NCBI RefSeq assembly: GCF_016412875.1
Contig: NZ_JAEKPD010000006.1
Span: 62,001-126,000 of the forward strand
Source of the DNA: Palleronia pontilimi
GTDB taxonomy: Bacteria; Pseudomonadota; Alphaproteobacteria; Rhodobacterales; Rhodobacteraceae
Direction: 5' to 3'
DNA: 64,000 bases
Shown in pieces: positions 39,536 to 54,617 of the stretch. Below the pieces are notes generated by a model, which worked only from the letters and a program-made list of their open reading frames with translations, was not told where the DNA came from and searched no databases. How positions within the stretch are numbered: the first letter of the stretch is position 1; each line of letters starts with the position of its first letter. Made by a program: the position numbers and the translations under genes.

Positions 39536-39542
39536 CCGCCCC

Positions 39543-39568
39543 ATCTTAGCTCTTCGAAAATATCCCGT
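39543..39568 (+). repeat. Recurrent 3'-UTR motif, divergent copy
   Basis: CATCTTAGCTCTTCGAAAAT followed by ATCCC lies 8 nt after the MFS stop codon. It has the CATCTT...AAATA layout of the motif copies at 7647, 60075 and 62751, with a longer middle. It points in the same direction as the gene it follows. Confidence 0.4.
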
Positions 39569-39635
39569 GGGAGTCCGAAGGACGGGGGCAGCGCCTGCCC
39601 GATCGTCGCTCGAGTGTCGCAGGCCACATCCGGAC

Positions 39636-39785
39636 GTCGCGGCAGCCAAAACGGTCATCTCCGACCTTGACGTCGGGCGCACCGCAGTCCCCGTAGACCA
39701 TGAGATCTGTCAGGAGGTGCTTCGGGCGGCGCGCAGCATTCGGAGTGCCGCGCGCTGTTGCTGTCTCGCGGCACTTGTCCATTCT
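39636..39785 (-). pseudogene. Serine recombinase zinc-ribbon remnant
   Basis: A minus-strand fragment of about 50 codons matches the zinc beta-ribbon region of large serine recombinases. It reads DKCRETATARGTPNAARRPK, then HLLTDLMVYGDCGAP, then DDRFGCRD, where intact proteins have a pattern like RPKHLLSGLLVCGECGG and FGCS. The first Cys of the ribbon is replaced by Tyr. No catalytic resolvase domain or other recombinase part can be found nearby, so it is a decayed remnant. It marks an old integration event at the left edge of the unusual gene block. Confidence 0.55.
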
Positions 39786-40244
39786 TGCGTGCCGCATACC
39801 AGCCGTTCCGCGGTACGATCCCGGCCGCTTCGAACATCGCCGGGACCGCCTCGTCATCGGTTGCGGACATGGCCTTCTCGCCCATCTCCGGGTTAAACTA
39901 TCTGCTTATCTTGCAGACAGGAGGCTCGCCCAGGCAGAGCCGCTTATGAAGCAACCTCTCGTGAAGGCCTATGTCACAGCGGATGGTGGACGCAATTTCG
40001 GTCCCGTCTTCGGGGGCGGGAACTATAGCCTTCGCCACGAGAGCTATTCCGCCGCTCTGCCAAAATCTCTGGATTTTAGTCGGAAGGGAGAGGACCGCAG
40101 CTGAGCCGACATCAGCCAAGCTGCCGGAAGACGGCTTCCATGCGGACGAACCGGTCCTTCGCCTCGTCACAATCGAAGGTCCTTTTCGGGTTGCGCATCA
40201 GGATGGGAATGTGCCGCGCCGACACATCCAAAATGGACGGTAGA
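39786..40244. other. No convincing gene
   Basis: About 460 bp between the recombinase remnant and the 3' end of the large-protein operon. Short open frames exist on both strands, but none has a recognisable family pattern or ribosome site. It is likely decayed mobile DNA plus the operon's 3' region. Confidence 0.5.
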
Positions 40245-42287
40245 TCAGGATTGGTCGATCTCTTCGGCAAGGCGCGCGGTGGCACTCCGGAAGCTGCCAT
40301 CGACAGAGCGGTTCGCCAGAAGCGCCGACAGGCTCTGGGGCGCGTCCGCGGCATAGCTTGCCACGTCTCGAAAGGAAATGCGGAACTCTGTGTCGAGCGC
40401 CTCGAAGCCTCTGTTGACCGGCGAAAGCGTGTCGAAACGCAAGCCTGAGCTGCCGAGCTGCGGCTTTCGCGGCAATCGCTCGCGCGTCGTCCAGGCCCGA
40501 ACCGAGCCGCCTGTCCAGCGAACGCGTATCGGAGCGCGCTCTATCCGCACTCCGCCGGGGGGAACGGCTTCGTCGTTGATGGGCGAGGGCGCGCGGAGGA
40601 TCTCGCCAGATGGATCGGCGGCCGCGTTGCGTGGGGCGTCGAAGAGCCGCGCGCGGACGAGCTTCCGGTGGTCCAGATCGGGCGGCATCTCGTATGGGAA
40701 ACGATTCTCCGGGACGTCCCCCGCGATCCGATAGGCCATCTGTGCCTCGGTCGGGGCGCGTCTGACATCGGGCGGTCGCGGAGCGGCCAGCACCTGCTCG
40801 GTCCGGTCTACCGTGAGGCCGGTCGCAGCGTCGGGGGCCTGCGCCTCCACGGCCCAGACGAGGTTCGCCCCCGGATCGCGCACGAGGTCAACGCGCTCGA
40901 TCACCGGACCGCGGTGGTGGTGGGGCAGGACGGGCGAGACGACGAGGGCCGTTTCCGGCCGACCGTCCGTGGCCGAGACATTCCTGCAGAAGACGAATCG
41001 ACCGTCCTCGGCCGGGACCTCCCGCGCCTCGGCCTCGCGACCGAAGGTGTCGCGGAAGACAACCCGACGCATCCTCGTCACGCTTCCTGCAAGGACGCCG
41101 AACGGCGCTATGAACCAGTTTCGCGCACCGCCGAGGGCGAATTCCGCTACCACCAGACGGGCAAGATCCTCAGGCGCCGGATCAAGATGGCCGTAATTCG
41201 TCTCGGGCGGCTCGACGGACCAGAGTCGCGCCAGCGGCATCCCTGGAAACCGCGCGGCAACGGGAATCGCAGTCACTTCGAACGGAGGGGCCGGGCGCGG
41301 CGCCTCGGCCGCGGGAAGACTGGCCTCCGTCGAAAAATCCATGTCCCACCAGTCGAGCGGGCCGCTTCGATGATCATTTATGCGCAGCACTGCGAGCCGC
41401 GTGGGAACCAGATCAGGCAGGATCAGGTCGGAGATGTCCGGCAGCGTGCTGCCCTGCCCGCCAAGAAGCGCGCCGAGATCTATCCCGCCGAGTACGCCCA
41501 CGCCTGGCATCATGATCGGCCCAATTCCCGCCACGTCGGTCACGACGCCGTCGGTCAGGATGTCCGGCCTCGCCAGGATGATCGGTTCGGCATTGCCCTG
41601 TGGGACGAGGATCTCGGCCTCGTGATCGAGGCTCGCGTCGCGCCACGTCGGCGCGCCTGCCTCGGATCTGTTCAACTCTTCCCGCAGGAGGCCGGAGAGC
41701 CCCTCCTGCACGACGGCGATGGCCGGGTCTCCGACGGCGATGCCTGCCGCTATTAGGATGTCGTCGATCGGCGCGTTCCGCACCATGTCGAGAAGGCCCA
41801 CGCCGTCGAAGCCACGCCCACCTCGATGAAGCGCCACGGCGCGCGCCGCCTTGCCCACACGCGGATCGGACGGAGTAGGCAGCGGGAACCGCTCGGCGAC
41901 GGCCTTACGGACCTCGGGCGGAAGGCCCGCATCGCGCAGGAGTCGCGCGATCTCACGGCCGAGGGAAAGACGCCGCGTGTCCCAGTGACGGAGTGGTGCG
42001 GCCCCCTCATCTCGGCCGACGCGCATTTCGAGCGGCATCACGCGCGGGTCGTAAGGTGCGGGTCTCTCCGTGGGTCCAGCCCGCGTGGCGGTGAAAGTGT
42101 TACTCTCCCCTTCTAGGCGGAGAAGGGCGGGGGTTCCGACGTCGCGTGCGGCGAACTCGCCCATCTCCGCCTGCCGGAGAAGAAACCAAAGCGGATCGGC
42201 AACGGGCATTCGCGCGGCCCGGGCTGGATCAGGATCGCGATCAAGCGGGACGAGACTGGCTGCGAGCTGTTCGGGATGCAGGGTCAT
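40245..42287 (-). CDS. Large uncharacterised protein, fifth of the coupled operon
   Basis: A soluble-looking protein of 680 residues with no signal peptide or membrane helix. The first half is helical (MTLHPEQLAASL, then ADPLWFLLRQAEMGEFAARD). A glycine- and isoleucine-rich stretch falls near 255-285. The region FPGMPLARLWSVEPPETNYG with APEDLARLVVAEFALGGARNW and VVFRDTFGREA, around 350-430, is one I associate with large proteins of unknown function, but I cannot name the family. The C-terminus is Arg-rich and rich in predicted strands. It overlaps the upstream gene by 4 nt, so it should be made in step with it. A structural role is an inference. Confidence 0.8.
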   Translation of the reverse strand: MTLHPEQLAASLVPLDRDPDPARAARMPVADPLWFLLRQAEMGEFAARDVGTPALLRLEGESNTFTATRAGPTERPAPYDPRVMPLEMRVGRDEGAAPLRHWDTRRLSLGREIARLLRDAGLPPEVRKAVAERFPLPTPSDPRVGKAARAVALHRGGRGFDGVGLLDMVRNAPIDDILIAAGIAVGDPAIAVVQEGLSGLLREELNRSEAGAPTWRDASLDHEAEILVPQGNAEPIILARPDILTDGVVTDVAGIGPIMMPGVGVLGGIDLGALLGGQGSTLPDISDLILPDLVPTRLAVLRINDHRSGPLDWWDMDFSTEASLPAAEAPRPAPPFEVTAIPVAARFPGMPLARLWSVEPPETNYGHLDPAPEDLARLVVAEFALGGARNWFIAPFGVLAGSVTRMRRVVFRDTFGREAEAREVPAEDGRFVFCRNVSATDGRPETALVVSPVLPHHHRGPVIERVDLVRDPGANLVWAVEAQAPDAATGLTVDRTEQVLAAPRPPDVRRAPTEAQMAYRIAGDVPENRFPYEMPPDLDHRKLVRARLFDAPRNAAADPSGEILRAPSPINDEAVPPGGVRIERAPIRVRWTGGSVRAWTTRERLPRKPQLGSSGLRFDTLSPVNRGFEALDTEFRISFRDVASYAADAPQSLSALLANRSVDGSFRSATARLAEEIDQS

Positions 42288-45200
42288 GGGCGGGGATCCT
42301 GAAAGCTGAGGACAGGTGGGAGCGCGCCAAGATCGGTGCCGAGATCGGTTGGGGCGGTGGCGCGCAAGCGAACGAGCTCGAAGGCCCGGTCGAGCGCGCG
42401 CAGGCCCGCATCCGCGGACCAGGCCGTATCCGTCGTCGCAATAAGTATCGTCTGCGGCGCCCGCGCCACCGGGCTAGGCGCCTCGACGGCGACGGCGGCT
42501 GTCACCTCGGGGTCGGGCAGGACCTCGGACCAATCGTCGAGGACCAACCCGCCAGCAGGCGCCACGGGTCGCGGGCCAATCACGGCCACGGCCCGGGAGA
42601 CGGGCGTATCCGCGGCAGAAGGTCCCATCGCCGCCCAGGGACCCGGCGCGTCCTGGATCGGGCAGAGCTTGAGCAGAGTCTCGTCGCGCAGGAGCTCGGC
42701 CGCCTCAATCGCTTCCAGCCCCTCGCGCAGACGACCCCGGACGGAGGCGGCTTCGGTTGCCCAGCGGCGCAACTCCTGCGGCCTAATTGCCGTCGCCTCG
42801 CCCGCTCTGATCCTTTCCGTCAGATCCTGTGCCGCATCGGTTGGAAGGCCAGGCACAAGCGGAAGCGTCGGGCCCAGTAGGTGCCGCAATGCATCGCCTG
42901 GTGTTTTCGCGTCCGCAGCGGCGGCGCGGTCAGAGGCGAGCCGCGCCGCAACCCCGGTCGCGAGCACCGGCAGCACCTCAGCCTCGGCACCCGGCGCGGA
43001 CTCGGCATCTGCGCGCCCGAAGCGCGCCGCATCGGCGAGGGCGGCGCGCAGGGTCGCCTCGTCAGCCTCGGCGATGGCCGCACTCAGACGGTCCTCTAGC
43101 TTCCCCGCTAGGGCCATGACATATTTGGGGCGCTTGCCGAAAGACGCGGCCTCGCCGGTCGGATCGGCTGGCAGGTCCTCGGGGAGGATGCCGCGCGCGT
43201 CCGTAACCATCGCGCGGAGACTGGCGAGCATTACTTTTGTCGCCGCGAATTCCGGCTGCCCATCAGGGCCTGCCGCCGCCGAGTCGATCCAGTCTCCGCG
43301 CGCGCCGACGAGCAGCGCCTCGACAAGCGGGTGGCGGGGCGCGTTGCCTGCCCGGGCCGAAAGCACGAGGCTTACGGCGTCGAGGCCGGTTGCTGTTAGG
43401 CTGACCCACCTGCGGGGGCCCGCGGCATCCACGACCCACGCGCCGTATTCGTCGAGCGGCCCGACAATGCTGGCAAGCGCATCTGCAAGTGGGCCCGTCG
43501 CGATGGCCCGGGCGGAAGCGAAGTCGCCTGGCCCTGGCTCGTCGGGCAGGGCGCCGAACGGCGTCTCCGCGCCGACTAGCAAGACCTTCACGTCGAGCCC
43601 CCGGCCCGCACGCTGCGTTCGCGCGACGGTGAAGCCTTCCGGAGAGACCGCTCCGCGGGAGACAGCGTCGAGCGCGGCACCCGCCCGCTCGGGCGTGGAG
43701 GCCGCAATGGCGTGGACGCCTTCGGCCAGACCCAGATCGGCGATGGCGTCGACGATGCCCGCCGCCACCTCGATGGCTTCGCGTGCTGCCTGGGGAAGCG
43801 CGGGGAGGTCGCCCGCATCATGCAGATCGACCAGCCGGATCCCGTCGCAGACATCCGTCGCCGCGAGGTCGCTTCCCGCATCGACGCCCGCGATCAATCC
43901 CTCGCGGAGTGGCGCGATAGCGCGCAGCGCAAGGATCAACTCGCGCAGCTGATTTGGCGCCAGCGAGGGCGCCGCCCGAAGCGCAGCTTCGATCCGAGTG
44001 CCGAGCACCTCGCCCAGCGCGCGGCCGGCCCTCAGGTCGTCCATTACGTCGGTTGCCGCGCGGACGCGCGCCGAACCAAGATCGAGAGCAAAGGCCCCGT
44101 CCCCGCCACCCGCGGCGCGGCGCCGCCTCCCCCCATCGCGGAGGATGGCGCCGGTGACGGCCTGGGTGGGGCTGCGGGCAAGAAGGTATTCGCCCGCCGT
44201 TGCACCCTTCGGATCGCGGGCGAGGCCGAAGACGCGCCCTGCCCCCGCGATCAGGATTCCGCGTCCCGATGCCGCCTCGAGCCGCGCGGCGTCGAGCGCC
44301 GTGATCCACGCATCGGGACGCGCCGAGACCAGTCCCAGATGCTCGCGCATTGCCAGCTCAAGCCGATCGACGGGATGCCTCGCGAGCAGGGTCATCGCCT
44401 TCTCAAGGTCGCGGTCGACAGCGGCGAGCGGCCCGTCGATACCCAGATCGCGTCGCGTTTCTTCTCCGAGCGGGATTGTCAGCGCTTCGAGATCGACGCC
44501 CGTCTTGTCGAGGAATGCGTCCAGGAGTGGGATCGCGGCGGGACCAGAACTCAGGTCATAGAGCGGCGGCGGGTCGATCGACTCGCGCTCCAGAACGTCA
44601 CGCATGACCTCGGCTAGGTGAGTGAAGAGCGCGTGGCGCATCAGCGTGAAGAGCAGCGGGTCGCCGGGGGCACCGGTGTCGAAGCTCCAGGTTCCGTCTG
44701 CCCGCATGAAGATCGGCCGAATTTCTGGCATCTCGCGCCAGGCTCGCACGGGCCAGCGTTCCTTCGGCATTAGTTGGAACAGTCGTCCGAGCGTCGGTGG
44801 CCCATCTCGTAGGAGTATCTCTTCGGTCTGGTCGCTGCGCCTGTCTTCGGCGAGGCGCCGGTCCCAACGCGACATCGGAAGGGGCGGAACGATGGGCAGG
44901 CTGGGAGCGGTGATGAGCGCATCGCGGGCCGGTGCCGCGTCTGGGTCGAGGCCGAGCGCGCGAAGCACGCGTCCGGTGCGAGGATTGTCGAGCGGTCGGA
45001 GGGCCGTCCAGATCGTCGCGGCGACGGTCTGGGGATGCGCACTCCGGGCGTGACGGAAGAGCCAATCCTTTCGGTCGGCGGGCGGATCGGTCGCAACCGA
45101 AGTGCGCGGCAAGAGCGCGAGGACCTTCGCGACCCGTTCGGCCAGCGCGGCGTCGCTGTCTCGCAGCGCGCGGGACGTGCCCGCCGGGCCTGCGCCGTCC

Positions 45201-46420
45201 ACCACCACCGGGAGAACGCCGTAGGGCTCGGTCCCGATCTGGAGGGCCGAAAATGGTCCGCGCGCGCGCAAACGCTCGATAAAGGTCCGGCGGATCGCTT
45301 CTCGCGGCTCCTGCCCGAGCCCGAGCGCCGCGTGACACCACAGACCCGCGCTTCCCGGCCAGAGCATCGTCGCCATGGCAGCGGCAAGCGTGTCCTCGTC
45401 GTGATCGGTGTCGCCCGCAAGCGCCAAGGTTTCCGGTGCAAGGCCGAACGCGCGTTCGAGCCGGGCAAGGTTCGGACCGCCGCGCCTTTCCGGCGGGCCG
45501 GGCGTGCGATGCACGCCGTCGTTCGCGGTAGCAGAACCTTGTGGCAGGACACGCAGTCCGCGCGCTGCCACATGGCCCTTCATGAGCGTGGTCAGATGCG
45601 CCGCGCCGACCTCGGCCGTCGCCCACCGGAGCCCGTGCACCGTCACGGTGTCGATCGTTCCGTCGGCGGCCAAGTGTTGCTCGAGCGTGGCTCCGTCGCC
45701 GCTCGACAGGTCGACACGGATGGCCATCCCGGCGGCGAGCGCCGCGTCGAAATCGAACATCCAGGCAATCCCGTCGGCGCTGATGGATCCGCCGGACCAG
45801 AGCCGGTCGAGCGCGCCCTCGTCCAGCAGGCCCCGGCGGTCCAGGACGGAGGGTCCGATCGGCAGCGGATCGGCCACGAGGGCGGGGAACGCCTGCTCCA
45901 ACGTGCCGCCCGGCCATTCGAGCCGCAGCGTCCAGCGATCCGCCAGTGCGCCGACCAGCCCGGGGCGGTCGTCCGCATCGGCGGGCCGCGGCGCCTTGCC
46001 GACGGCGACGGCATCGCGGGCGCGGACCGCACGCGCCACGCCCAACGTCTCGTCCATCCAGCGGTGCAGCTCCGACTGGCGAGCGGGAGCCCCGGCAACC
46101 GTCTCGGCCACCGCTGTAGCGACCTGATGGTCGCCCGTCGGCACCCGTGGATCGTAATCGTCGAGATGGATCGTGTCTGGATAGACGCGGACGCAGAGGG
46201 CACCGTCGAGAAAGGCCGTCTCCAGCCGGACCGGCAGGCAGGCGACAGGTGCCTCCGCGTCCCACAGGGCCGCGCGTTCTTCGGGCCGTAGCGACGACAT
46301 CTGCTGGCGAAGTCTATCCAGATCCCTGCGGATGGGTTCCGGGTCTGCGCCGTCATCGAATGCGCGGCGCAACGCGTCGCGAGCCTGCTCAATCTTCTGG
46401 GCAAGGTCGTGTGCGCTCAT
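42284..46420 (-). CDS. Very large uncharacterised protein, fourth of the coupled operon
   Basis: A 1378-residue protein with no signal peptide or clear membrane helix. An N-terminal helical segment (about 5-50) precedes a conserved-looking block CLPVRLETAFLDGALCVRVY at 61-80, continued by PDTIHLDDYDPRVP. A second landmark, FSALQIGTEPYGVLPVV, lies at 390-406. The remainder is Ala-rich and mostly helical with repeated 'ALRA/ALAD' runs. I associate the two landmarks with giant proteins of unknown function in several phyla, but know no assigned activity. It overlaps both neighbours by 4 nt. No catalytic motif was recognised. Confidence 0.82.
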   Translation of the reverse strand: MSAHDLAQKIEQARDALRRAFDDGADPEPIRRDLDRLRQQMSSLRPEERAALWDAEAPVACLPVRLETAFLDGALCVRVYPDTIHLDDYDPRVPTGDHQVATAVAETVAGAPARQSELHRWMDETLGVARAVRARDAVAVGKAPRPADADDRPGLVGALADRWTLRLEWPGGTLEQAFPALVADPLPIGPSVLDRRGLLDEGALDRLWSGGSISADGIAWMFDFDAALAAGMAIRVDLSSGDGATLEQHLAADGTIDTVTVHGLRWATAEVGAAHLTTLMKGHVAARGLRVLPQGSATANDGVHRTPGPPERRGGPNLARLERAFGLAPETLALAGDTDHDEDTLAAAMATMLWPGSAGLWCHAALGLGQEPREAIRRTFIERLRARGPFSALQIGTEPYGVLPVVVDGAGPAGTSRALRDSDAALAERVAKVLALLPRTSVATDPPADRKDWLFRHARSAHPQTVAATIWTALRPLDNPRTGRVLRALGLDPDAAPARDALITAPSLPIVPPLPMSRWDRRLAEDRRSDQTEEILLRDGPPTLGRLFQLMPKERWPVRAWREMPEIRPIFMRADGTWSFDTGAPGDPLLFTLMRHALFTHLAEVMRDVLERESIDPPPLYDLSSGPAAIPLLDAFLDKTGVDLEALTIPLGEETRRDLGIDGPLAAVDRDLEKAMTLLARHPVDRLELAMREHLGLVSARPDAWITALDAARLEAASGRGILIAGAGRVFGLARDPKGATAGEYLLARSPTQAVTGAILRDGGRRRRAAGGGDGAFALDLGSARVRAATDVMDDLRAGRALGEVLGTRIEAALRAAPSLAPNQLRELILALRAIAPLREGLIAGVDAGSDLAATDVCDGIRLVDLHDAGDLPALPQAAREAIEVAAGIVDAIADLGLAEGVHAIAASTPERAGAALDAVSRGAVSPEGFTVARTQRAGRGLDVKVLLVGAETPFGALPDEPGPGDFASARAIATGPLADALASIVGPLDEYGAWVVDAAGPRRWVSLTATGLDAVSLVLSARAGNAPRHPLVEALLVGARGDWIDSAAAGPDGQPEFAATKVMLASLRAMVTDARGILPEDLPADPTGEAASFGKRPKYVMALAGKLEDRLSAAIAEADEATLRAALADAARFGRADAESAPGAEAEVLPVLATGVAARLASDRAAAADAKTPGDALRHLLGPTLPLVPGLPTDAAQDLTERIRAGEATAIRPQELRRWATEAASVRGRLREGLEAIEAAELLRDETLLKLCPIQDAPGPWAAMGPSAADTPVSRAVAVIGPRPVAPAGGLVLDDWSEVLPDPEVTAAVAVEAPSPVARAPQTILIATTDTAWSADAGLRALDRAFELVRLRATAPTDLGTDLGALPPVLSFQDPRP

Positions 46421-49353
46421 GGCCGGGCAACTCCGATCAGCGCGTCGGCATGGAAGGCCACGCGGACGTCGAGTTGCAAGGTGATCGCAGCCATGTGCGC
46501 GGCGCTCCGGCCCCAGGTGACGCCACCATGAGCGGCACCGCCGAGCGTGGCGTTCAGCCTTGCCTCGGGCGCATCTGGGGGCGGCGGCGCCTGTGGATCG
46601 GGAAGTTCGACAGGCACGTGGGTGAGCCCGTCAAGCTCCGCCTCGCGCGCTTCTCCAGGCAACTTGTCGCTCATGAGATCGCCCCAATATATCGGGTCCC
46701 AGGCCGAGTCTGCCGGATAGGAAACGAGCGGTGCCGCGGCGGATCCGCCCGCGCCGAAATTCCTTCCGAAGTCCTCCGCATCGTACTTCAGCGTCTCGTC
46801 AAGGCCGAAGCGCGGCTCGGTCGGCGGGCCCTCGATCATGAAGAACCAACCGCCATCCTCACCGTTGGCCTGCACCTGCTCCGGCGTCAGGTCAAATCCC
46901 AGGAACGTCACGTCCGGTGAGAGCGTGCCGCGGAAGATCGGCATGCGCGCGTCGCCGTACGTCCTGAGCTCAGGGGCCGGGAAAGCGCCGTCCGACCCCG
47001 CGGTGCGGGCCTTCGCGGGCAGGCCGTAGATCATCGTTTCCGGGAAGCGGCGCAAGAGGTCGCCCCGGATCAGGAGCACCAAGCCCGCTACCCCCGCCGC
47101 GTCCCTTGGCGCATGGCTGCCGAGGGTGCCGCCCCATTCGTGGATAGGGACAATGTCGGCGGTGCTGGCGACGGAAGCGGTGCCCCGCCGATCCCAGAAC
47201 GTCCGGGCGGGCGTGCCCCGCCGGTCGGTCGGGAAGCCGCGCCAAAGCATCTCGGCGCTAAGCTCGTGATTGAAACCCGCCAGCAGCGCTTCGACAAATT
47301 CCGGGTCTGGCTCCAGAAGCGAAATCGCGTTCTGCGGCACCCTGTCGAGGCCCGGTAGCATCCAGTCCTGCGACTGGGCCTTCAGGTCGAGGTAAAGCGG
47401 ACGAGGTAAATCCGGCCATGTGACAACGGGGTGCAGTGGGTCGTCCGTCGGCTGATGCGCGGACACGGCAGGCCCCAAGCGGCCCTTGGTCCGACGCGGC
47501 AGCGTAACATCGGGGTCAAGGCCCGCGCAAAGGATGCTACGCGCGGTCTGCCAGTCAGGGTCGGCGGCGAAGGCGGTCGGGATGTCGGCGGGCCGGATCC
47601 CGGCGACAGCGGTCCTGAGCTCCTCGATCGCCTCGCGGTCGGATGCGGAGAGCCGCCCATCGATCTCAGGGCCATTCAGCAGTCCTGCTACGCGGGCGGC
47701 AAGCTTCATCCGATCCGCAATTTCACCCGCAACACCCGGAGCGGCGGCTTCCGCGCGCCGCAGCGCCGCTCCGCTCGGCACCCCGCGGACGGCTTCGGCG
47801 GCCGTTGCCGTCATGGAAGTGGAAGTGGAAGTGGAAACCACACGGTCTGCTACCGAGCCTATGGTATCCCAAATCCGCGTGGGTGGCGCATCTTGACCTA
47901 CCGGGCAGAGCCCATCGTCGAGTTCCAAATGCCGGGCGGCGATGCGGCGGCTGGCGGCCCGTGAGAGGCGCGCGCGGTCCAGGCGCGCATTGATCTGCTC
48001 GATGGCGCCGAACTGGGCCCATATCTCCTCCATCAGCGCGTCCTGCTTCCGGCGAACGATCTCGGCCCCGATACCCGCAGCGGCGCGGTGGCGCGTGGCC
48101 GTCGAGATCTCGCGCAGCCAGTCATGCTCAGGCGCAAGCCTGTCGAGCCCGCGCGTGCTGCGCCCGGCGGCCCAGCGGCCCCAGGCGGGGGGGCCGAGCA
48201 GATGACCGTTTGCCCCGTCGTCAGGATCGCGCATCGCGTCGGCGAGTGCAGGCGCCAACGGATCGGCGGGTGGTGGCGACGGCATCATCCGCACCGGCCG
48301 AAGCGCGCCACCGATGTCAAGTGTCGGCGTCTCGGCGGTGGTGAGGGCCGGGAAGGGCAGGCCCCGAAGCGCGCCTTCGGCCGTGCCAGGTGTGCCGTCG
48401 TCCTGCGGGATCTCGGCGGCGGGCAGGCGCACCGCGCGCATTCCCAACTCAACCGGAAGGCCGGGGCGCTGAACGTCGACCGCACGGCGGCCGATATCGG
48501 GGCCGAGCGGCTGCGCCTCGAGTAAACGGGCCAGCGCCTCGAAATCGCCCTCTGCCGTAGTGCGGAAGCGCCAATGATGGAAGACGGGGAGGTAGATGGG
48601 CCCGGTATCTTCCACGGTCCAGGCGGGTCCTGTTTCGTCGGTGCCGTCCTCGCCGAGCGCAGCCGCCCGCCCGGCGGCGAAGAGCGGCACAACGGCGCAA
48701 AGATATGCCCGACGCGGCGAGAGGTTACGGGGACAGAGCAGCCGGGCGATGACACCCCGTTCGCCTGCAATCTTTGCAGCGACCTCGTCCGCCGTGGGTG
48801 TCGTCGCCGCATCGATCCCTGATACCTGCACATGCGCCCAGGCCCAAGCTTCCTCTGGGTCGGGAAGCACGCCGCGCCAGCCAGCAAGCGGACGACCCTC
48901 TGGGGGCGCGACACGGAGAACAGGGCGCCCGTTGCCGTCCCGGTCGAGAGTTGCCTCCGTCCCCTCCTCAACGCAGACGAGGACAATCCAGGGCGTGAGG
49001 TTGCCGTTCGCGTCGGGGGCCGCGGGCGTAAACATCCACGGCAGGTCCGCCGCGCCGAACTCGACAGACGGCATCAGATTGGGGAACATGTCCGGTGTGC
49101 CATCCGGCGGTTCCGAGCGGAGCACGACGTCGGGGCCGAACCCGGCGACATCGCCCGGCCCCATCATGGCGAGGCCGTCGACCGCGATCGGGTCGCGCGC
49201 CATGAGTTGCGACGCGTTTTCACCGGCCTCAATCGTCACGGACACGTCCAGCGGCGGTCGCGCAGGCATTGTCGCGAGTGCGGATGGGCCGATCAGCGTG
49301 CCCGCAAAGCCGCGGCGAACCCACGGCAGGAAAAGGCGGTCGGGCGTGCTCAT
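46417..49353 (-). CDS. Large uncharacterised protein, third of the coupled operon
   Basis: A 978-residue protein without a signal peptide. Landmarks are DRLFLPWVRRGFAG at the start, TPWIVLVCVEEGTEAT near 135, LPDPEEAWAWAHVQVSG near 185, LLCPRNLSPRRAYLCAVVPL near 225 and PIYLPVFHHWRFRTTAEGDF near 275. The C-terminal third has GWFFMIEGPPTEPRFGLDE. A Ser-Thr repeat (VVSTSTSTSMTA) comes from a hexanucleotide repeat in the DNA. The family is not named to my knowledge. It is coupled to the DUF6603-like gene upstream and the 1378-residue gene downstream, each with ATGA overlap, implying a joint assembly. Confidence 0.82.
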   Translation of the reverse strand: MSTPDRLFLPWVRRGFAGTLIGPSALATMPARPPLDVSVTIEAGENASQLMARDPIAVDGLAMMGPGDVAGFGPDVVLRSEPPDGTPDMFPNLMPSVEFGAADLPWMFTPAAPDANGNLTPWIVLVCVEEGTEATLDRDGNGRPVLRVAPPEGRPLAGWRGVLPDPEEAWAWAHVQVSGIDAATTPTADEVAAKIAGERGVIARLLCPRNLSPRRAYLCAVVPLFAAGRAAALGEDGTDETGPAWTVEDTGPIYLPVFHHWRFRTTAEGDFEALARLLEAQPLGPDIGRRAVDVQRPGLPVELGMRAVRLPAAEIPQDDGTPGTAEGALRGLPFPALTTAETPTLDIGGALRPVRMMPSPPPADPLAPALADAMRDPDDGANGHLLGPPAWGRWAAGRSTRGLDRLAPEHDWLREISTATRHRAAAGIGAEIVRRKQDALMEEIWAQFGAIEQINARLDRARLSRAASRRIAARHLELDDGLCPVGQDAPPTRIWDTIGSVADRVVSTSTSTSMTATAAEAVRGVPSGAALRRAEAAAPGVAGEIADRMKLAARVAGLLNGPEIDGRLSASDREAIEELRTAVAGIRPADIPTAFAADPDWQTARSILCAGLDPDVTLPRRTKGRLGPAVSAHQPTDDPLHPVVTWPDLPRPLYLDLKAQSQDWMLPGLDRVPQNAISLLEPDPEFVEALLAGFNHELSAEMLWRGFPTDRRGTPARTFWDRRGTASVASTADIVPIHEWGGTLGSHAPRDAAGVAGLVLLIRGDLLRRFPETMIYGLPAKARTAGSDGAFPAPELRTYGDARMPIFRGTLSPDVTFLGFDLTPEQVQANGEDGGWFFMIEGPPTEPRFGLDETLKYDAEDFGRNFGAGGSAAAPLVSYPADSAWDPIYWGDLMSDKLPGEAREAELDGLTHVPVELPDPQAPPPPDAPEARLNATLGGAAHGGVTWGRSAAHMAAITLQLDVRVAFHADALIGVARP
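47814..47836. repeat. Hexanucleotide tandem repeat (TGGAAG, 3.8 copies)
   Basis: A perfect short tandem repeat of TGGAAG within the coding region of the 978-residue protein. It encodes alternating Ser and Thr on the minus strand. As the unit is 6 bp, changes in copy number keep the reading frame and vary only the length of this linker. Confidence 0.8.
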
Positions 49354-52300
49354 GCCGCCTCCTCGATCTCGTCGCGGGCGATTACCCGGAGGGCGTCCCG
49401 ATCCTCGGGATGACGGGCGAGATGCGACCGGAGCGCGGCCCGCGCACCCGCCTGCGTGTCGGCACCATCGGCGGCAAGCTCCGGCATGTCGGCAAAGGGC
49501 GCGTTGCCCGTCGGCCCCATTGGCCTTAGATCGGCCGTCGAGACGATAACCCAACTGGCGTCGCGCAGGCCGAAGCCCGCTACCGGACCGGACCTGTCCG
49601 GCGGACGCGTCTGATCGATTGCGGCCGCCATCACGTTAGAGTCCATCCGATCCCGGGTCGGCGCGCGGTCGTCATTGACGGTGATCGTTCGGCGGAAGAC
49701 GTCCCGAGCGACCCAAGGCGCTGTCGCCCCCGATGCGGACGGGAGCGCCCAGCCGGACGCACCGTAGCCGGACGCGCCCGCATTCATCGGCTCGAAGCTC
49801 TCGGCGGCGAGCTTCTCGTCGTCGCTCATGTCGAAGAATTGAGCCGGGGCGAAGTACTCCCGCAGCGGTGTCGTTCCCGTGCGTTCGATCGTAAGAGTGT
49901 CGCCGCCGACGCCTACGGCAACCGAGCCGAGCCTGAAATGACGCAGCACGCCCGGACGGGCCGCGCCGAAACGCTCCAACGTGACGCCGAGTGGAACGAT
50001 GCGCTGACGCACGCCGAGTTGCCCCATCGGGTGCACAGCGCCAGCCTTTTCCGCGCCGCAGCGCAGGCGGACGAGGGTCGCCCCTCCTTTGGGCAACTCG
50101 GCGCGCCAGTTCCCGGCGATCGCCATGGCCTCGGCGAGCGGCGCCCATGGGTCGGTCTGCGGGAGCTGCGCCGTCACGGCTTTCCCGAAAGTCGCGTCGA
50201 AGGGCACGTCGATGTCGAGAAAGAAAAGCGACACCGTCGCGGTGCCCGAAGCGCGGTAGGGGGAGGGCCCAGTCAGCGTCAGCCGCAGCGACACGCCCAT
50301 GATTCGCGAGGCGCCGCGCTTGAGCGCGAGGCCTGCGCGCATCTCAACCTGAAACCGGAAGGGCTCCAGCTCAAAGAGCGCGTCGAAGCCGAGCCAGCCC
50401 TCCACCGTGAAGCCCATCGCAGATGCACGCGCGTCGAGTTGTGCGCCGAATTGCACCGTGTTCGAGGTCAGTGCGACAAAGCATTCGAGCCGCAACCGGG
50501 GGTTGTCCCCCGCGCCGAGCGAGACTGCGATGCGGTTGAGATCCGGAAGCTCCGGCGGCCGCTCGAAGGCAGGATGCACTCCGCCAATTGCCAGCACGAA
50601 GAAGGGTGAGGCGCCCCATCGCATCCGCATCGCCATTTCGCCGTCGAGGGTGTAGAGCGCGATCTTGCTGTCGAAGAGCACCGCGTCTAGAGACGCCTCG
50701 GATCGGTCGAAATCGATGACCCCCAGCAGGTCCATATTGATCTTGACGATCATCGTGTCGATCGCGAGCGACGGCAGGCCGACGCGCAGCTTACCTAGGA
50801 TCAGAAGCCGCAGCGGACTGTCAAGCTCGAGCACTATGCCAAGCTCGGCCGTAATTACACTAGGGGTGCCCCAGCCCAGCTTCGCCATCGGTCCGAAGAC
50901 GTGTTGGTCTTGCCGGATCGGGAACGCGCCCTCCAGATCGCGCACAATCTCGGGGGCCCGAGCGACCGGGTCTTTGGGAAACATGATACTGTCGAGCGTC
51001 TGCGTGCGAAGCCCGTCGCGCAGCGCGTCAGCGTCCACCGTACGATGAATTCCGACGAGCCCGCCAAGCGCGTTCAGCGTGAACCCGAAGCCGAGCTGGA
51101 TCGGCGGGAAATCCGACGCAATCAAAAGGATGAGCGAGAACCCTTCGTCCGGTGCCCCGTCACCATTCGCGTCGGGAAGTTTCGTTACGAGAAGTCCGAC
51201 GGCCGAAACCCCGATTTCGCCGATCTGTAGCGCCAGCGCGCCGCTATACCGGCCCTTCTCAGGCTCGAAGGACAGAAAGCCGCCGCCGGAGACGACGTTG
51301 TTCGTTATCTGCATCCCGATCCCGACTGGCGGACGGGCCACGAGACGCGGCCTTTCATCCGTCGAACGCTCTAGTCGAATGCCGATACCGTCGATGCTCG
51401 CCGTTGCCGGGCCCAAGGTAACGGAGACCGCGGTTCCCAGCTCGATCAGCGTTTCGTCCTTTCCGAACGATACGTCGATGCTTGAGAAGAAGACTGGCCC
51501 GATCTGCAGAGCGACCGGAACCTGAAAGCCCAGGCTGTCGCCGCCGATCAACTTTGGCCCTGAACCCGATTGCCAAGACAGGCCAACGGTTCCCAGGTCG
51601 AGTTTCTGGGAGCTCGGAAGAACCGCTGCCAGAAACCCATCCCCGCCGAGGCGAAACTCGACGGAAACGTTTTCGACACCGAATGTCAGACCGACCCCTT
51701 CCTGCTCGGCCGCCGAGACTTCGATACGCGGCCCGCCAGCCCTCAACATCCCCAGTCTATCTAGCCTTAACCTCTCGGACTGCTCCGGATCGGTGGCCGC
51801 GAAGAGCTTCAGGGAAGCGTCCGATCGCACGCCCGGCACGATCTTCATATCGCCCGGACGGAGCACCAAAGTCGGTCCATCGGCTTCGCCAACCGCCGCC
51901 TCCAAGCCGTAGGTCCAGCCATCCTCGTCGATGGTGCGCGAGATGTCGCCGCGGGCATAAGGCGACAGACCGAGTCCGCCCGGCAGCGGTAGAATTCTGA
52001 AACCTGCCTCTACCGAAAACCCATGGAGCAGAATGGACTGGGCGCCCAGAAGCTGTTCGTCGAACTCCGCCTGGATCAACGGCAGAAGCGTCGCCGTCAC
52101 CTCCTCCGTGATGCCCAGAGCAGTGGGAAGGTTCTCGGGCTGCAGATCGCGCCGATACCCAAGGCCGAGGTCCAGTTCGAAGGCGGCCCTTCGCAGGACC
52201 GCAGTTGCGTTCTCGGCGAACCGTTCCGGCTGATCGCCGTCGCCCCACCCGTATACCTCCTGTGCCCACTGGGCCGGATCGGTGAAGGCCGCCCGCAAGG

Positions 52301-52727
52301 CGTCGATGTGCAGCGATGTTTTTCCGGCGCGATTGTGCCTGAGCACGCCAAGTATCCTCAGCATGGCACCGGCGGTCGGCATGCGCCTGGACAGGTATTC
52401 CGACACGAGCATCGCAATCACGGCCCGCGCCGCGACACGGCCCGCCTCTGTCGAGGTGAAGACCGGCGAGTTGAGCAGATCGGCAAGGATACCCAGCAGG
52501 CCGAACAGCAGGGTCCAGTCGATCTCGACCGGCTCTTCGGGCAGTCTGGTGGCAGCCTGTCCGACCGCGTCCAGCGAGGCTAGAAAGGGACCTGGATCGA
52601 TCGTCTCGGGATCGCCGAGCGATAACTCCGAAAGGAGGACTCTGGCCGCACCCTCGGACCCTGCGGCCTCAGCGAGAGGGTCCAGAAATATCAGCATTTC
52701 CCGGCGGAGCGTCGTGAAACCTGTCAC
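49350..52727 (-). CDS. DUF6603-like giant protein, second of the coupled operon
   Basis: A 1125-residue protein starting at a GTG that overlaps the subtilase stop (GTGA). Residues 1-230 are helical. From about 230 to 900 it is a long chain of amphipathic beta strands with frequent Gly, ending each repeat-like unit in patterns such as VALQIGPVFFSSIDVSFG and LALQIGEIGVSAVGLLV. The signature LGFGFTLNALGGLVGIHRTV at 545-564, followed by IMFPKDPVARAP and HVFGPMAKLGWGTP, is what I recognise as the DUF6603 core. No enzyme motif is seen. Such an extended beta structure could form a scaffold or a groove, but this is inference. There is no signal peptide. Confidence 0.85.
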   Translation of the reverse strand: MTGFTTLRREMLIFLDPLAEAAGSEGAARVLLSELSLGDPETIDPGPFLASLDAVGQAATRLPEEPVEIDWTLLFGLLGILADLLNSPVFTSTEAGRVAARAVIAMLVSEYLSRRMPTAGAMLRILGVLRHNRAGKTSLHIDALRAAFTDPAQWAQEVYGWGDGDQPERFAENATAVLRRAAFELDLGLGYRRDLQPENLPTALGITEEVTATLLPLIQAEFDEQLLGAQSILLHGFSVEAGFRILPLPGGLGLSPYARGDISRTIDEDGWTYGLEAAVGEADGPTLVLRPGDMKIVPGVRSDASLKLFAATDPEQSERLRLDRLGMLRAGGPRIEVSAAEQEGVGLTFGVENVSVEFRLGGDGFLAAVLPSSQKLDLGTVGLSWQSGSGPKLIGGDSLGFQVPVALQIGPVFFSSIDVSFGKDETLIELGTAVSVTLGPATASIDGIGIRLERSTDERPRLVARPPVGIGMQITNNVVSGGGFLSFEPEKGRYSGALALQIGEIGVSAVGLLVTKLPDANGDGAPDEGFSLILLIASDFPPIQLGFGFTLNALGGLVGIHRTVDADALRDGLRTQTLDSIMFPKDPVARAPEIVRDLEGAFPIRQDQHVFGPMAKLGWGTPSVITAELGIVLELDSPLRLLILGKLRVGLPSLAIDTMIVKINMDLLGVIDFDRSEASLDAVLFDSKIALYTLDGEMAMRMRWGASPFFVLAIGGVHPAFERPPELPDLNRIAVSLGAGDNPRLRLECFVALTSNTVQFGAQLDARASAMGFTVEGWLGFDALFELEPFRFQVEMRAGLALKRGASRIMGVSLRLTLTGPSPYRASGTATVSLFFLDIDVPFDATFGKAVTAQLPQTDPWAPLAEAMAIAGNWRAELPKGGATLVRLRCGAEKAGAVHPMGQLGVRQRIVPLGVTLERFGAARPGVLRHFRLGSVAVGVGGDTLTIERTGTTPLREYFAPAQFFDMSDDEKLAAESFEPMNAGASGYGASGWALPSASGATAPWVARDVFRRTITVNDDRAPTRDRMDSNVMAAAIDQTRPPDRSGPVAGFGLRDASWVIVSTADLRPMGPTGNAPFADMPELAADGADTQAGARAALRSHLARHPEDRDALRVIARDEIEEAA

Positions 52728-53794
52728 GGCAACTCTAATCCGGACGCGTCGGGCAAGGGTTGGTCCAGCAAACAGTCTACGTTCAGCTGGCCCGCCAGGG
52801 TTCGCTCCGGCCACCCGCGATTTGCGGGGCCTGCCGAGGCCCGGAGACAATGGATGAAGGCGCTGACGGTTTTGCCCAGGCCGTATTTCATCCGCAGCTT
52901 GGTCTTGCCGTGATGCCTGATCCAAAGCGCGGCGGCGGCAGCCACAAACTGCGTCGAATAGGAGGAGCCAGCGGTGCTTTCACCCACGACCCGCGCCACC
53001 GAACCGGTCGCGGGTTCGTAAGCACGCGTGATGCGAATGTTAATTCCCGGAGAGACAACGTCCAACTCCGCCTCGTCGTAGAAGCCGAGCTGGTTCGGTT
53101 CTCCGGTGCGGTCGATTGCGCCGACACCGACAGACCATGGCCTGTTCGCCGGAAAAACAACGTCGACTTCCCTCCAGGCAGGGCCGAACGGAACCTGACC
53201 ACCGGCCGCGACAATGATGACCCCTTGGCGGGCATACGTGCGCAACAGCTTTTCAACCTTTTTCTGGCTGAAGAAGCGCGATCCAAGGCTCAGGGCGAGA
53301 ACGTGAGGCGCTGGCCCGCCGCCCGGCTCGTTGAGCAGACGTTCTGTGAAATGCCCCAAGGCTTCGCAGAGATAGGTGAGTTCGTCGCTCTTGAGGCCGA
53401 CGAAAGTGGTGATGCGGTACGGGACATATTTGATGCCCGAGATACCATCCAGCGCGGCGTGTATGGGCGACGATCCGGCGACTACGCTATAGGTGGCGGT
53501 CCCGTGGTTGTTGAAGTTCACAAAGCCGCCGAGCTCGTCTTCTGGAAGCTCATCCAAGGGTGTCCATGGTTCGCGGCTTTTACCCTCGATTAGATTGGCG
53601 GAAAAGCGCGTTTCCAAAAATGACGGACCGACATTCGCGGATTCCACAAGGCCTGTATCCATATGAGCCACGAAGACCGTATCGTTCGGATCTTCGGCCG
53701 GGCGGCTGCGGACGACGTCGAAATTGCAGTACCAAGTTGCCCAATCCTGGCCTGTCAACTCATTCGGAGCTTGGCCGTTAGGTGTGCAGGACAT
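52724..53794 (-). CDS. S8 subtilisin-like serine protease, first of the coupled operon
   Basis: A 356-residue subtilase. The catalytic triad can be placed: Asp46 in VAHMDTGLVES, His97 in NFNNHGTATYSVVAG and Ser278 in TAGSSYSTQFVAAAAAL. The oxyanion Asn of typical subtilases is Gly199 (VIIVAAGGQ), so activity may be weak or specialised. It has no signal peptide and no I9 propeptide. The start at 53794 has a GAGG ribosome site 7 nt upstream; a TTG at 53809 is less likely. It overlaps the DUF6603-like gene by 4 nt. It may process the other large proteins of the operon, which is inferred from position only. Confidence 0.85.
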   Translation of the reverse strand: MSCTPNGQAPNELTGQDWATWYCNFDVVRSRPAEDPNDTVFVAHMDTGLVESANVGPSFLETRFSANLIEGKSREPWTPLDELPEDELGGFVNFNNHGTATYSVVAGSSPIHAALDGISGIKYVPYRITTFVGLKSDELTYLCEALGHFTERLLNEPGGGPAPHVLALSLGSRFFSQKKVEKLLRTYARQGVIIVAAGGQVPFGPAWREVDVVFPANRPWSVGVGAIDRTGEPNQLGFYDEAELDVVSPGINIRITRAYEPATGSVARVVGESTAGSSYSTQFVAAAAALWIRHHGKTKLRMKYGLGKTVSAFIHCLRASAGPANRGWPERTLAGQLNVDCLLDQPLPDASGLELP

Positions 53795-53993
53795 GAATGG
53801 ACCTCGCAAGGCTCAGCGCGGGACATCCATGGGTGAGCCCCACGGAGCTCATCATCTTCTGATCCCAATGCACGCCGACGGATCGGCGACAACGGGGGCG
53901 CAGTGGGTGGGAACAGATCGTGGGGCTTGGAAACGTGGCGACAGGACTGCCTCTCCGAAGTGGCCGCACGCGGAAGCTGATTCGGTCGGGAAT

Positions 53994-54617
53994 CTAGCCA
54001 CTTCTGCCGTCCTGTCGCATCCGCAGTTCCGCCACTTCTGCCGCGAGTTCCTTTACTGCTTCGACCAACAGCGGGACGAGCGTCGCATGCTCCACCGCAA
54101 GGTGATCCCCTGAGTCGCGCACGGCCTCGGGCACAGCCCTCCGCAGGTCCTGGGCCAGAAAGCCAAGCCGTTGCTCCTGTGTGCGGGCGGCGAAGCGATA
54201 CCTGTAGCCAGTGACCGAGCGCAGCGTGGACAGGGCGCCATCAATCGGCTGACAATCGGTCTTGAGCGTGGCATCCGATATCTGAACGACCCGGTCGGCC
54301 ACCAGTGTTCCGGACATGGTAACGTCGCCCTTCGCCCCATCCATGTGCACGGTCTGGCGGGTATTGCGGTCGTAGAGCGTGACATCGCCATCCTCGGTGG
54401 TGCCGCCGAGATGCAGCGAGCCGCTCTCTCCGTTCAGTCCGATGGTCAGATTGCCCGCTCGGTCGGTTAACATCAGATCCCCGTCGCGCCCCGCGCCACC
54501 AAGGGTCAGATTGCCGTCATTGACGGACAGGACGACGGTATCGCCCGTCGGCGTGCGTATTCGGATTTCTCTCCCAATCAGTTCCAAGCTATCGCCTGCC
54601 AAAATGACATCACTCAT
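53994..54617 (-). CDS. Protein with beta-repeat stalk and S74 self-cleaving chaperone domain
   Basis: A 207-residue protein with a phage tail-fibre style design. Residues 1-105 are short Gly/Asp-rich beta repeats (GNLTLGGAGRDGDLML, GNLTIGLNGESGSLHLGG, GDVTLYDRN). Residues 110-200 are a peptidase S74/intramolecular chaperone domain: the dyad Ser114 and Lys119 in ISDATLKTD, then LGFLAQDLRRAVPEAV, ending in a coiled coil (LLVEAVKELAAEVAELRM). In known cases this domain trimerises the stalk and then cuts itself off before the Ser. It lies 199 nt upstream of the protease gene on the same strand, probably with its own role in building the same complex. Confidence 0.85.
   Translation of the reverse strand: MSDVILAGDSLELIGREIRIRTPTGDTVVLSVNDGNLTLGGAGRDGDLMLTDRAGNLTIGLNGESGSLHLGGTTEDGDVTLYDRNTRQTVHMDGAKGDVTMSGTLVADRVVQISDATLKTDCQPIDGALSTLRSVTGYRYRFAARTQEQRLGFLAQDLRRAVPEAVRDSGDHLAVEHATLVPLLVEAVKELAAEVAELRMRQDGRSG

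What the first reader, a model, noticed from the sequence alone, without database searches (positions are those of the whole stretch)
40245..54617. Translationally coupled operon of giant proteins with S8 protease, DUF6603-like protein and S74 tail-fibre-like protein
Seen: five genes on one strand, each overlapping the next by exactly 4 nt (GTGA or ATGA): S8 subtilase, 1125-residue DUF6603-like protein, then proteins of 978, 1378 and 680 residues. A gene with an S74 chaperone domain lies 199 nt upstream. None has a signal peptide. No phage capsid, sheath, tube, baseplate or portal gene is present, so it is not a plain prophage. Inference: the products build one large complex, with the S74 protein as a trimeric spike or fibre and the protease as a processing factor. 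The conserved landmarks in the giant proteins suggest a family found elsewhere but without a known role.
Basis: partly seen in the sequence, partly recalled or inferred. Interest (0 to 1): 0.88.

Follow-up and report, generated by a model that had tools for sequence, protein, structure and literature searches.

The report
Widespread four-gene giant-protein operon
A set of four very large, uncharacterised proteins is encoded side by side, in the same order, in very different bacteria and salt-loving archaea, sometimes behind an exchangeable enzyme gene; it looks like an undescribed molecular complex whose job is still unknown.

Summary
In detail: coordinates, four 4-nt overlaps and the 199-nt gap are exact. 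But the conserved unit is four genes, DUF6603–gA(978)–gB(1378)–gC(680); the S8 protease and S74 protein are local additions. In genome loci picked by gA alone, wherever enough sequence was held, DUF6603 was present in 69 of 70, gB in 67 of 67, gC in 56 of 56. Order and strand hold in 70 of 74 complete loci. Hosts span six bacterial phyla in the tree plus haloarchaeal plasmids. gA, gB and gC have no credible Pfam, NCBIfam or PHROGs family. Models of DUF6603 and gA show no convincing match to solved structures. No relative was found among phage records (DUF6603 searched) or viral contigs (DUF6603, gA). The gene upstream varies: PhoD-like phosphatase in 22 of 75 loci, elsewhere subtilase (as here), phospholipase D or M64 peptidase. 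A same-genus genome lacks the 16.7-kb stretch. Best explanation (inferred, about 0.4): a complex without Sec signals that carries an exchangeable hydrolase and acts at a surface. Rivals: conflict system, lipid handling, injection-system partner.

The parts
53994..54617 (-). Accessory gene: 207-aa protein with a repetitive N-terminal part and a C-terminal Peptidase_S74 (endosialidase-type chaperone) domain
   Evidence: Pfam S74 E 9.1e-12; PHROGs tail-fibre/baseplate families, mostly over its C-terminal half; the only S74 match in its genome; not a conserved partner
52724..53794 (-). Accessory gene in the variable first position: 356-aa S8 subtilase, triad residues D46/H97/S278 present
   Evidence: Pfam E 5.6e-9; triad alignment; other loci carry larger S8, PhoD-like, PLD or M64 proteins in this position
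49350..52727 (-). Core gene 1 (D): DUF6603 protein, 1125 aa; helical N-terminus, then a long run of amphipathic beta-strands
   Evidence: Pfam E 2.2e-130; AlphaFold2 pLDDT 76.5, pTM 0.54; strand amphipathicity 2.65 against 1.38 (sd 0.18) shuffled, highest of 1000 shuffles 1.99
46417..49353 (-). Core gene 2 (gA): 978 aa, no named family; N-terminal part homologous to a gene of a second kind of DUF6603 cluster
   Evidence: no credible family; AlphaFold2 pLDDT 78.5, pTM 0.76, no PDB match at E 0.001; hhalign 97.9% over 227 columns to 'type B' gene B1
42284..46420 (-). Core gene 3 (gB): 1378 aa, no named family
   Evidence: present in 67 of 67 gA-selected loci with room
40245..42287 (-). Core gene 4 (gC): 680 aa, no named family; two haloarchaeal relatives end in Lamin Tail Domains
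   Evidence: present in 56 of 56 gA-selected loci with room
39515..56213 (.). Stretch of 16,699 bases absent from a same-genus genome: its flanks are adjacent there
   Evidence: window 39514 and 56214 map to L123 positions 16525 and 16510; that genome also has no DUF6603 match

Best explanation
The four core proteins (4,161 residues together) assemble in the cytoplasm into one large complex. Where present, the exchangeable gene at the front of the operon supplies a hydrolase that the complex carries or positions: here a subtilase, elsewhere a PhoD-type phosphoesterase, a phospholipase D-family protein or an M64 peptidase. The complex has no recognisable Sec signal, so it would leave by lysis or an unknown route and act at or outside a cell surface, aimed by add-on binding modules; the S74 protein would be such a module here. 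Shown: the operon, the near-obligate co-occurrence and order, the variable front gene, the absence from one same-genus genome, the lack of relatives in the phage and viral collections searched. Inferred: complex formation, carriage of the enzyme, release, targets.
For: Co-occurrence 69/70, 67/67 and 56/56 in loci chosen by gA alone; conserved order 70 of 74, three of the four exceptions being merged reading frames and one, L092, an inversion of gB-gC; exact 4-nt overlaps at 38/89, 33/84 and 25/77 core joins, most others with a possible start within -30..+60 nt of the stop. Front gene: PhoD-like in 22 of 75 type-A loci with at least 2.5 kb upstream, overlapping DUF6603 by exactly 4 nt in six of them, 19 of 22 with the GDQIYAD stretch; S8 in the window, L022/L046, L079 and L080; PLD in L034 and M64 in L109. 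Add-on modules usual in extracellular or surface proteins (recalled): Lamin Tail Domain and TIG in gC relatives, FG-GAP in one gA, PG_binding_1 in 5 of 48 front proteins, S74 here. N-terminal hydrophobic 19-mer above 1.8 in 0 of 94 D, 0 of 95 gA, 0 of 86 gB, 0 of 78 gC reading frames. Absent from a same-genus genome and found on plasmids.
Against: No complex was predicted or measured. 53 of 75 loci have no PhoD-like front gene; I recognised another enzyme in only a few of these and did not scan all of them, so the enzyme is not obligatory. Surface modules occur in few members (LTD 2 of 36, TIG 1 of 36); 0 of 29 gB relatives have a Pfam match at E 0.01, and the 'BGTF surface domain' named in PLSDB for two haloarchaeal gB proteins was not found by Pfam. 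The signal-peptide test on relatives used the longest possible reading frames, whose first 60 residues may lie before the true start. No release route is encoded. 12 of 15 plasmids with DUF6603 are predicted non-mobilizable.
Confidence: 0.4

Rival explanations
1. Intracellular conflict (defence-like) system: the giant core senses an invader and switches on the exchangeable hydrolase, which damages the cell or the invader.
For: Patchy distribution (DUF6603 in 10 of 295 family genomes; 9 of 398 phylum genomes), plasmid loci with recombinase genes within about 10 kb, absence from a same-genus genome and an exchangeable hydrolytic front gene are usual for defence systems (recalled).
Against: No PADLOC model matches any of the seven proteins scanned; no nucleotide-binding or sensor domain was found in the core by Pfam; the few add-on modules are surface-type.
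Confidence: 0.2
2. Lipid- or envelope-handling complex: DUF6603 forms a hydrophobic beta-groove or barrel that binds lipid-like molecules, and the front enzyme (PhoD, PLD) processes phosphodiester-containing envelope material.
For: 30 strands of 8 or more residues with strong alternation of hydrophobic and polar residues; Foldseek's top PDB listings are FimD/PapC ushers, LptD and ApoB, 13 of them at E 0.001 or better; PhoD and PLD act on phosphodiesters (recalled).
Against: TM-scores of those listings are at most 0.16 by the query and 0.30 by the target in the 50 shown; ordinary soluble beta-barrels and sandwiches are amphipathic too; hosts without outer membranes (Actinomycetota, haloarchaea) carry it; subtilase and M64 front genes do not fit.
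Confidence: 0.17
3. Payload or accessory of an extracellular contractile injection system encoded elsewhere in the genome.
For: The genome has an eCIS-like locus on contig C18 with two sheath and two tube matches. Tube family PF06841 is in 5 of 10 DUF6603-positive family genomes against 27 of 285 others (Fisher p 0.0019; without the own genome 4 of 9, p 0.0088). Of these ten, type-A genomes have it in 2 of 3 and type-B genomes in 3 of 7.
Against: Half of the DUF6603 genomes in that sample lack the tube family; in the phylum sample it is 3 of 9 against 21 of 389, and 2 of 8 without the own genome, p 0.073. PF06841 is not confined to eCIS (recalled). No homologue of the window proteins was found in the 20 kb of the eCIS-like contig examined. 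Genome size and kinship were not controlled.
Confidence: 0.1
4. Relic or module of a phage or prophage.
For: S74 domain resembling tail-fibre families; weak tail-collar match in a type-B cluster; in the viral structure library the DUF6603 model's best listings reach E 3.4e-6 and, for a putative tail-fibre protein, 2.7e-5.
Against: Those two structural listings have TM-scores by query of 0.09 and 0.10. tblastn of DUF6603 finds none of 50,697 phage records (gA, gB and gC were not searched there); viral contig scans gave 0 relatives among 24 candidate stretches for gA and 35 for DUF6603, from two peptide patterns each; no PHROGs family for DUF6603, gA or gC and only E 0.31 for gB; seven of ten flanking genes scanned have non-viral families, the other three none.
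Confidence: 0.03

Closest known systems
DUF6603 (Pfam PF20248)
   Same: Core gene 1 is a full-length member (E 2.2e-130, profile 2-501 of 502)
   Different: The Pfam entry names one domain of unknown function, not the four-gene unit. None of the papers held contains 'DUF6603', 'PF20248' or 'IPR046538' (the last number recalled)
Second DUF6603 cluster ('type B', seven loci here)
   Same: DUF6603 gene with a gA-related gene beside it (hhalign 97.9%, E 5.5e-13 over 227 columns) and further giant genes
   Different: Its other giant genes gave no hhalign match to gB or gC in the three comparisons made; its DUF6603 proteins lie on one side of a branch with SH-aLRT 100
Extracellular contractile injection systems
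   Same: Large multi-gene operon without recognisable Sec signals, patchy; an eCIS-like locus is encoded elsewhere in this genome
   Different: No sheath, tube, baseplate or ATPase family in the six proteins, apart from baseplate/tail-fibre PHROGs that the S74 part shares
Defence systems with exchangeable effectors
   Same: Conserved core, variable hydrolase, patchy distribution
   Different: No PADLOC match

Membership tests
DUF6603 (PF20248) | score over the curated cut-off | tested here: met
   436.1 bits against 27
Peptidase_S8 | family profile and Asp/His/Ser triad | tested here: met
   36.2 bits against 21.8; D46, H97, S278 align with three larger subtilases; activity not testable
Peptidase_S74 | family profile | tested here: met
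   45.5 bits against 22
Peptidase_S74 | self-cleavage and trimer formation | not testable with these tools
   needs protein; an S-D-x-x-L-K stretch is at 114-119 (motif recalled)
Extracellular contractile injection system | sheath, tube and baseplate genes in the operon | tested here: not met
   Pfam and PHROGs scans of the six proteins
Phage tail module / prophage | relatives of the giant genes in phage genomes | tested here: not met
   none found: phage records with DUF6603, viral contigs with gA and DUF6603
Known anti-phage defence system | match to a catalogued defence protein | tested here: not met
   PADLOC, 7 proteins, none at E 0.01
Usher / LptD-type outer-membrane barrel | same overall fold as solved members | tested here: inconclusive
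   top Foldseek listings at E 1e-4 but TM-score by query at most 0.16; the model's own pTM is only 0.54
Tc/RHS toxin complexes | Tc or RHS domains in the core proteins | tested here: not met
   no such Pfam match in the core or in the relatives scanned

The most novel reading that the evidence does not exclude
A virus-independent, cell-built giant protein particle, shared by bacteria and haloarchaea and spread horizontally, made of four so far undescribed structural proteins and able to carry an exchangeable hydrolase: a delivery or display device unrelated to tails, pili, secretion systems and Tc complexes.
Probability: 0.3. Interest if true: 0.92.

Novelty: categorically new. Interest (0 to 1): 0.8.

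Why it matters
Four genes that are almost never found apart across several bacterial phyla and haloarchaeal plasmids probably make something together. Three of the four have no family name, the two that were modelled have no convincing match among solved structures, and the front gene swaps enzymes. If it is a particle or complex it would be a new class of prokaryotic molecular machine, and the operon gives a defined set of genes with which to test that directly.

Tried and rejected
Phage origin: disfavoured. Sequence-profile search of solved structures with the four core alignments: nothing useful; the best (E 0.0056) is a designed helical protein on the helical N-terminus of DUF6603. Foldseek of the DUF6603 model in the PDB and viral libraries and of the gA model in the PDB: listings with low E for DUF6603 but TM-scores by query of 0.16 or less in the rows shown; none at E 0.001 for gA (best E 0.1; two small CopC beta-domains fit part of it with TM by target 0.41-0.55). 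Mobile-element signatures at the ends of the 16.7-kb stretch: no plasmid DNA match for either flank, only short imperfect repeats, no integrase found. Homology of gB to B2, and of gC to B3 or B2, in type-B clusters: not supported. A lead about PhoD in root-nodule bacteria (PMC4653623, two passages seen) was unrelated. A search combining PhoD-like phosphatase, effector, contractile injection, peptidase S8 and gene neighborhood listed 10 papers; from listing and abstract starts none seemed to describe this operon. GH59 and regulator genes at the -1 position were treated as probable chance neighbours.
Full report
The thing itself. The coordinates in the finding are right. Five minus-strand genes, S8 (52724-53794), DUF6603 (49350-52727), gA (46417-49353), gB (42284-46420) and gC (40245-42287), each overlap the next by 4 nt. 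An S74 gene (53994-54617) lies 199 nt upstream. Pfam names only S8, S74 and DUF6603. For gA, gB and gC the best listings are E 0.16 in Pfam, 0.047 in NCBIfam and 0.31 in PHROGs. The subtilase is short but keeps the three catalytic residues when aligned with larger subtilases from three other loci.

The conserved unit. In the plasmid collection DUF6603 has relatives in 15 records: Streptomyces 5, Embleya 2, and one each of Halalkalicoccus, Salinigranum, Natrinema, Halobellus, Gemmatirosa, Rhizobium, Nocardia and Paraburkholderia; 12 of the 15 are predicted non-mobilizable. I opened eight of the 15; all eight show relatives of gA, gB and gC by BLAST. I then built a gA alignment of seven sequences (A2) and used it alone to scan the 84,980-species collection: 103 stretches, 86 relatives, the best 80 kept. 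Iterated profiles over 99 sources (the window and L012-L109) found DUF6603 in 94, gA in 97, gB in 86 and gC in 78 (E 1e-5). At E < 1e-8, 98 of the 99 sources have at least one core gene: all four 74, DUF6603+gA 9, no gC 8, no DUF6603 4, DUF6603 only 3. Of the 24 incomplete ones, seven are type B (below), three are the rearranged Aestuariivita pair and L104, and the other 14 stop at or near an end of the sequence held on the side where a gene is missing. In the 80 gA-selected loci, wherever enough sequence was held, DUF6603 was present in 69 of 70, gB in 67 of 67 and gC in 56 of 56. The one miss, L104, has a gene behind gC that clusters with one in Aestuariivita. L025 and L089 both come from a contig of 102,970 bases and are taken as one contig; there DUF6603 lies beyond two extra genes behind gC. 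Order and strand are the same in 70 of 74; of the four exceptions L030, L051 and L062 are merged or overlapping reading-frame calls, and L092 has gB-gC on the other strand. The set is not an even sample: it holds near-copies such as L050/L055 and L022/L046, and it was picked by one peptide pattern.

Translational coupling is common elsewhere too: exact 4-nt overlap at 38 of 89, 33 of 84 and 25 of 77 of the three joins, most of the rest with a possible start within -30 to +60 nt of the stop.

The front position. Profiles started from the window's S8 and S74 hit nothing but the window in the 99 sources. The gene just upstream of DUF6603 changes. I gave 48 upstream proteins to Pfam (52 candidates were listed, four were left out as duplicates or fragments and one was swapped for a neighbouring gene). 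38 families matched, 25 shown: PhoD-like phosphatase in 17 of 48, PG_binding_1 in 5, Peptidase_S8 in 3, Peptidase_M14 in 2, and single hits such as M64, PLD, GH59, a sulfatase and several regulators, some of which are surely chance neighbours. An iterated profile finds the PhoD-like protein in 22 of 75 type-A loci with at least 2.5 kb upstream of the DUF6603 frame, 19 of the 22 with a GDQIYAD stretch, and six with an exact 4-nt overlap with DUF6603. Large subtilases sit there in L079 and L080 (Pfam) and L022/L046, one genome (profile and triad); a phospholipase D-type protein in L034 and an M64 peptidase in L109. So the window's subtilase fills a slot that elsewhere holds other hydrolases. But 53 of 75 loci have no PhoD-like gene there, I recognised another enzyme in only a few of those, and I did not scan them all.

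Spread. In a same-genus genome (G066) the sequence left of window 39514 and right of 56214 is adjacent, with 14 bases between (L123 16525 and 16510), so 16,699 bases have been gained here or lost there. No integrase, clear end repeat or plasmid match was found at the ends. A quick maximum-likelihood tree of 89 DUF6603 proteins puts the seven type-B sequences apart from the 82 type-A ones (SH-aLRT 100). By supported branches it needs at least 5 changes for Actinomycetota and 4 for Pseudomonadota, which suggests transfer but does not prove it. The window's own branch is long (1.14) and its place is unsure; the highest identity to another row is 42% over 497 columns.

Type B. Seven of the ten DUF6603-positive family genomes carry another arrangement. 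A gene beside DUF6603 is homologous to gA (hhalign 97.9%, E 5.5e-13, 227 columns), but gB did not match B2 and gC matched neither B3 nor B2 (B3 rests on two sequences). One B3 has a weak, below-cut-off tail-collar match.

Structure. The AlphaFold2 model of the DUF6603 protein (pLDDT 76.5, pTM 0.54) is mostly helical in the first 185 residues and then a long succession of beta-strands, high in confidence from about 400 to 850. Alternation of hydrophobicity in 30 strands of 8 or more residues is 2.65 against 1.38 (sd 0.18) after shuffling within strands, the highest of 1000 being 1.99. Foldseek lists ushers, LptD and ApoB at E 1e-4 to 7e-3, 13 entries at E 0.001 or better, but in the 50 rows shown TM-scores are at most 0.16 by query and 0.30 by target, so no shared overall fold is shown. 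The viral library gives three at E 0.001 or better, the best at 3.4e-6 with TM by query 0.09, the second a putative phage tail-fibre protein at 2.7e-5 with 0.10. The gA model is better as a whole (pLDDT 78.5, pTM 0.76); its best PDB listing has E 0.1 and TM by query 0.07, and small beta-domains (CopC) fit a part. A hydrophobic 19-mer above 1.8 in the first 60 residues occurs in 0 of 94, 0 of 95, 0 of 86 and 0 of 78 reading frames of D, gA, gB and gC. This is a simple threshold, not a signal-peptide predictor, and the frames run from the first possible start, so it is firm only for the window's own proteins.

Not phage, as far as searched. DUF6603 has no relative in 50,697 phage records (the other three were not searched there). 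IMG/VR scans gave no relatives among 24 candidate stretches for gA and 35 for DUF6603. Of ten neighbouring reading frames scanned, seven have Pfam families, all hydrolase, aminotransferase, peptidase or membrane, none viral; three have none.

Link with contractile injection systems. The same genome has an eCIS-like locus on another contig. PF06841 occurs in 5 of 10 DUF6603-positive family genomes and 27 of 285 others (p 0.0019; without the own genome 4 of 9, p 0.0088), and in the phylum sample in 3 of 9 and 21 of 389 (p 0.013; without the own genome 2 of 8, p 0.073) (both searches of a sample are taken to have drawn the same genomes, as handles and totals agree). This is an association of unknown cause. 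In the phylum sample gA was found only in the own genome (1 of 398, E 1e-10), a search that scored at most two candidates per genome and did not pick up the type-B relative in G205.

Mechanism. I commit to a multi-protein complex that can carry or position an exchangeable hydrolase and acts at a surface. The operon logic, the near-absolute co-occurrence and the front-gene swapping are shown. Association of the proteins, carriage, release and target are inferred. Add-on modules in some members, Lamin Tail Domain, TIG, FG-GAP and PG_binding_1, and the S74 protein here, are of kinds usual outside the cell (recalled), but only a few members have them; PLSDB's 'BGTF surface domain' in two haloarchaeal gB proteins was not found by Pfam. 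The defence-like reading is the main rival.

Novelty. No held paper contains DUF6603, PF20248 or IPR046538, and two wider word searches showed nothing on this operon. Subscription papers and preprints were not searchable, so absence from print is not proved. 'Categorically new' refers to the four-gene unit: three unnamed families, no convincing fold match for the two proteins modelled, and no match of the core to catalogued phage or defence families.

Noticed in passing
G000 contig C18, L128 (C18:12001-32000): The same genome carries an eCIS-like locus with two sheath (PF04984) and two tube (PF06841) matches on a 32.7-kb contig.
   Followed up: partly
L080 and L032: These two Nitrospira loci have two DUF6603 genes, with a subtilase between them in L080, and an extra gene of 269-311 aa between gA and gB.
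   Followed up: partly
L025 and L089 (both from a 102,970-base Aestuariivita contig): Rearranged operon: gA-gB-gC, then unnamed genes of 981 and 763 aa, then DUF6603.
   Followed up: partly
L039 and L041 (NZ_FRCQ01000016.1): Rhizobacter sp. OV335 has two different copies of the operon roughly 60 kb apart on one contig.
   Followed up: no
L023:150-2393 (-): Last gene of a type-B DUF6603 cluster ends in a weak phage tail-collar match (E 0.0071, below the curated cut-off).
   Followed up: no
G126:C4:5250-5924: Another family genome with a type-A operon (on contig C33) has, on contig C4, a 715-aa reading frame with four matches to the repetitive N-terminal part of the window's S74 protein.
   Followed up: no
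L092: Streptomyces rubellomurinus has gB and gC on the strand opposite to DUF6603 and gA, and a GH59 gene upstream.
   Followed up: no
window 54618-56213: About 1.6 kb without a recognised gene between the S74 gene and the right end of the 16.7-kb stretch; the 2-kb bins at 52-56 kb have the lowest GC of the window apart from the first bin (0.619 and 0.625; the whole range is 0.619-0.739).
   Followed up: partly
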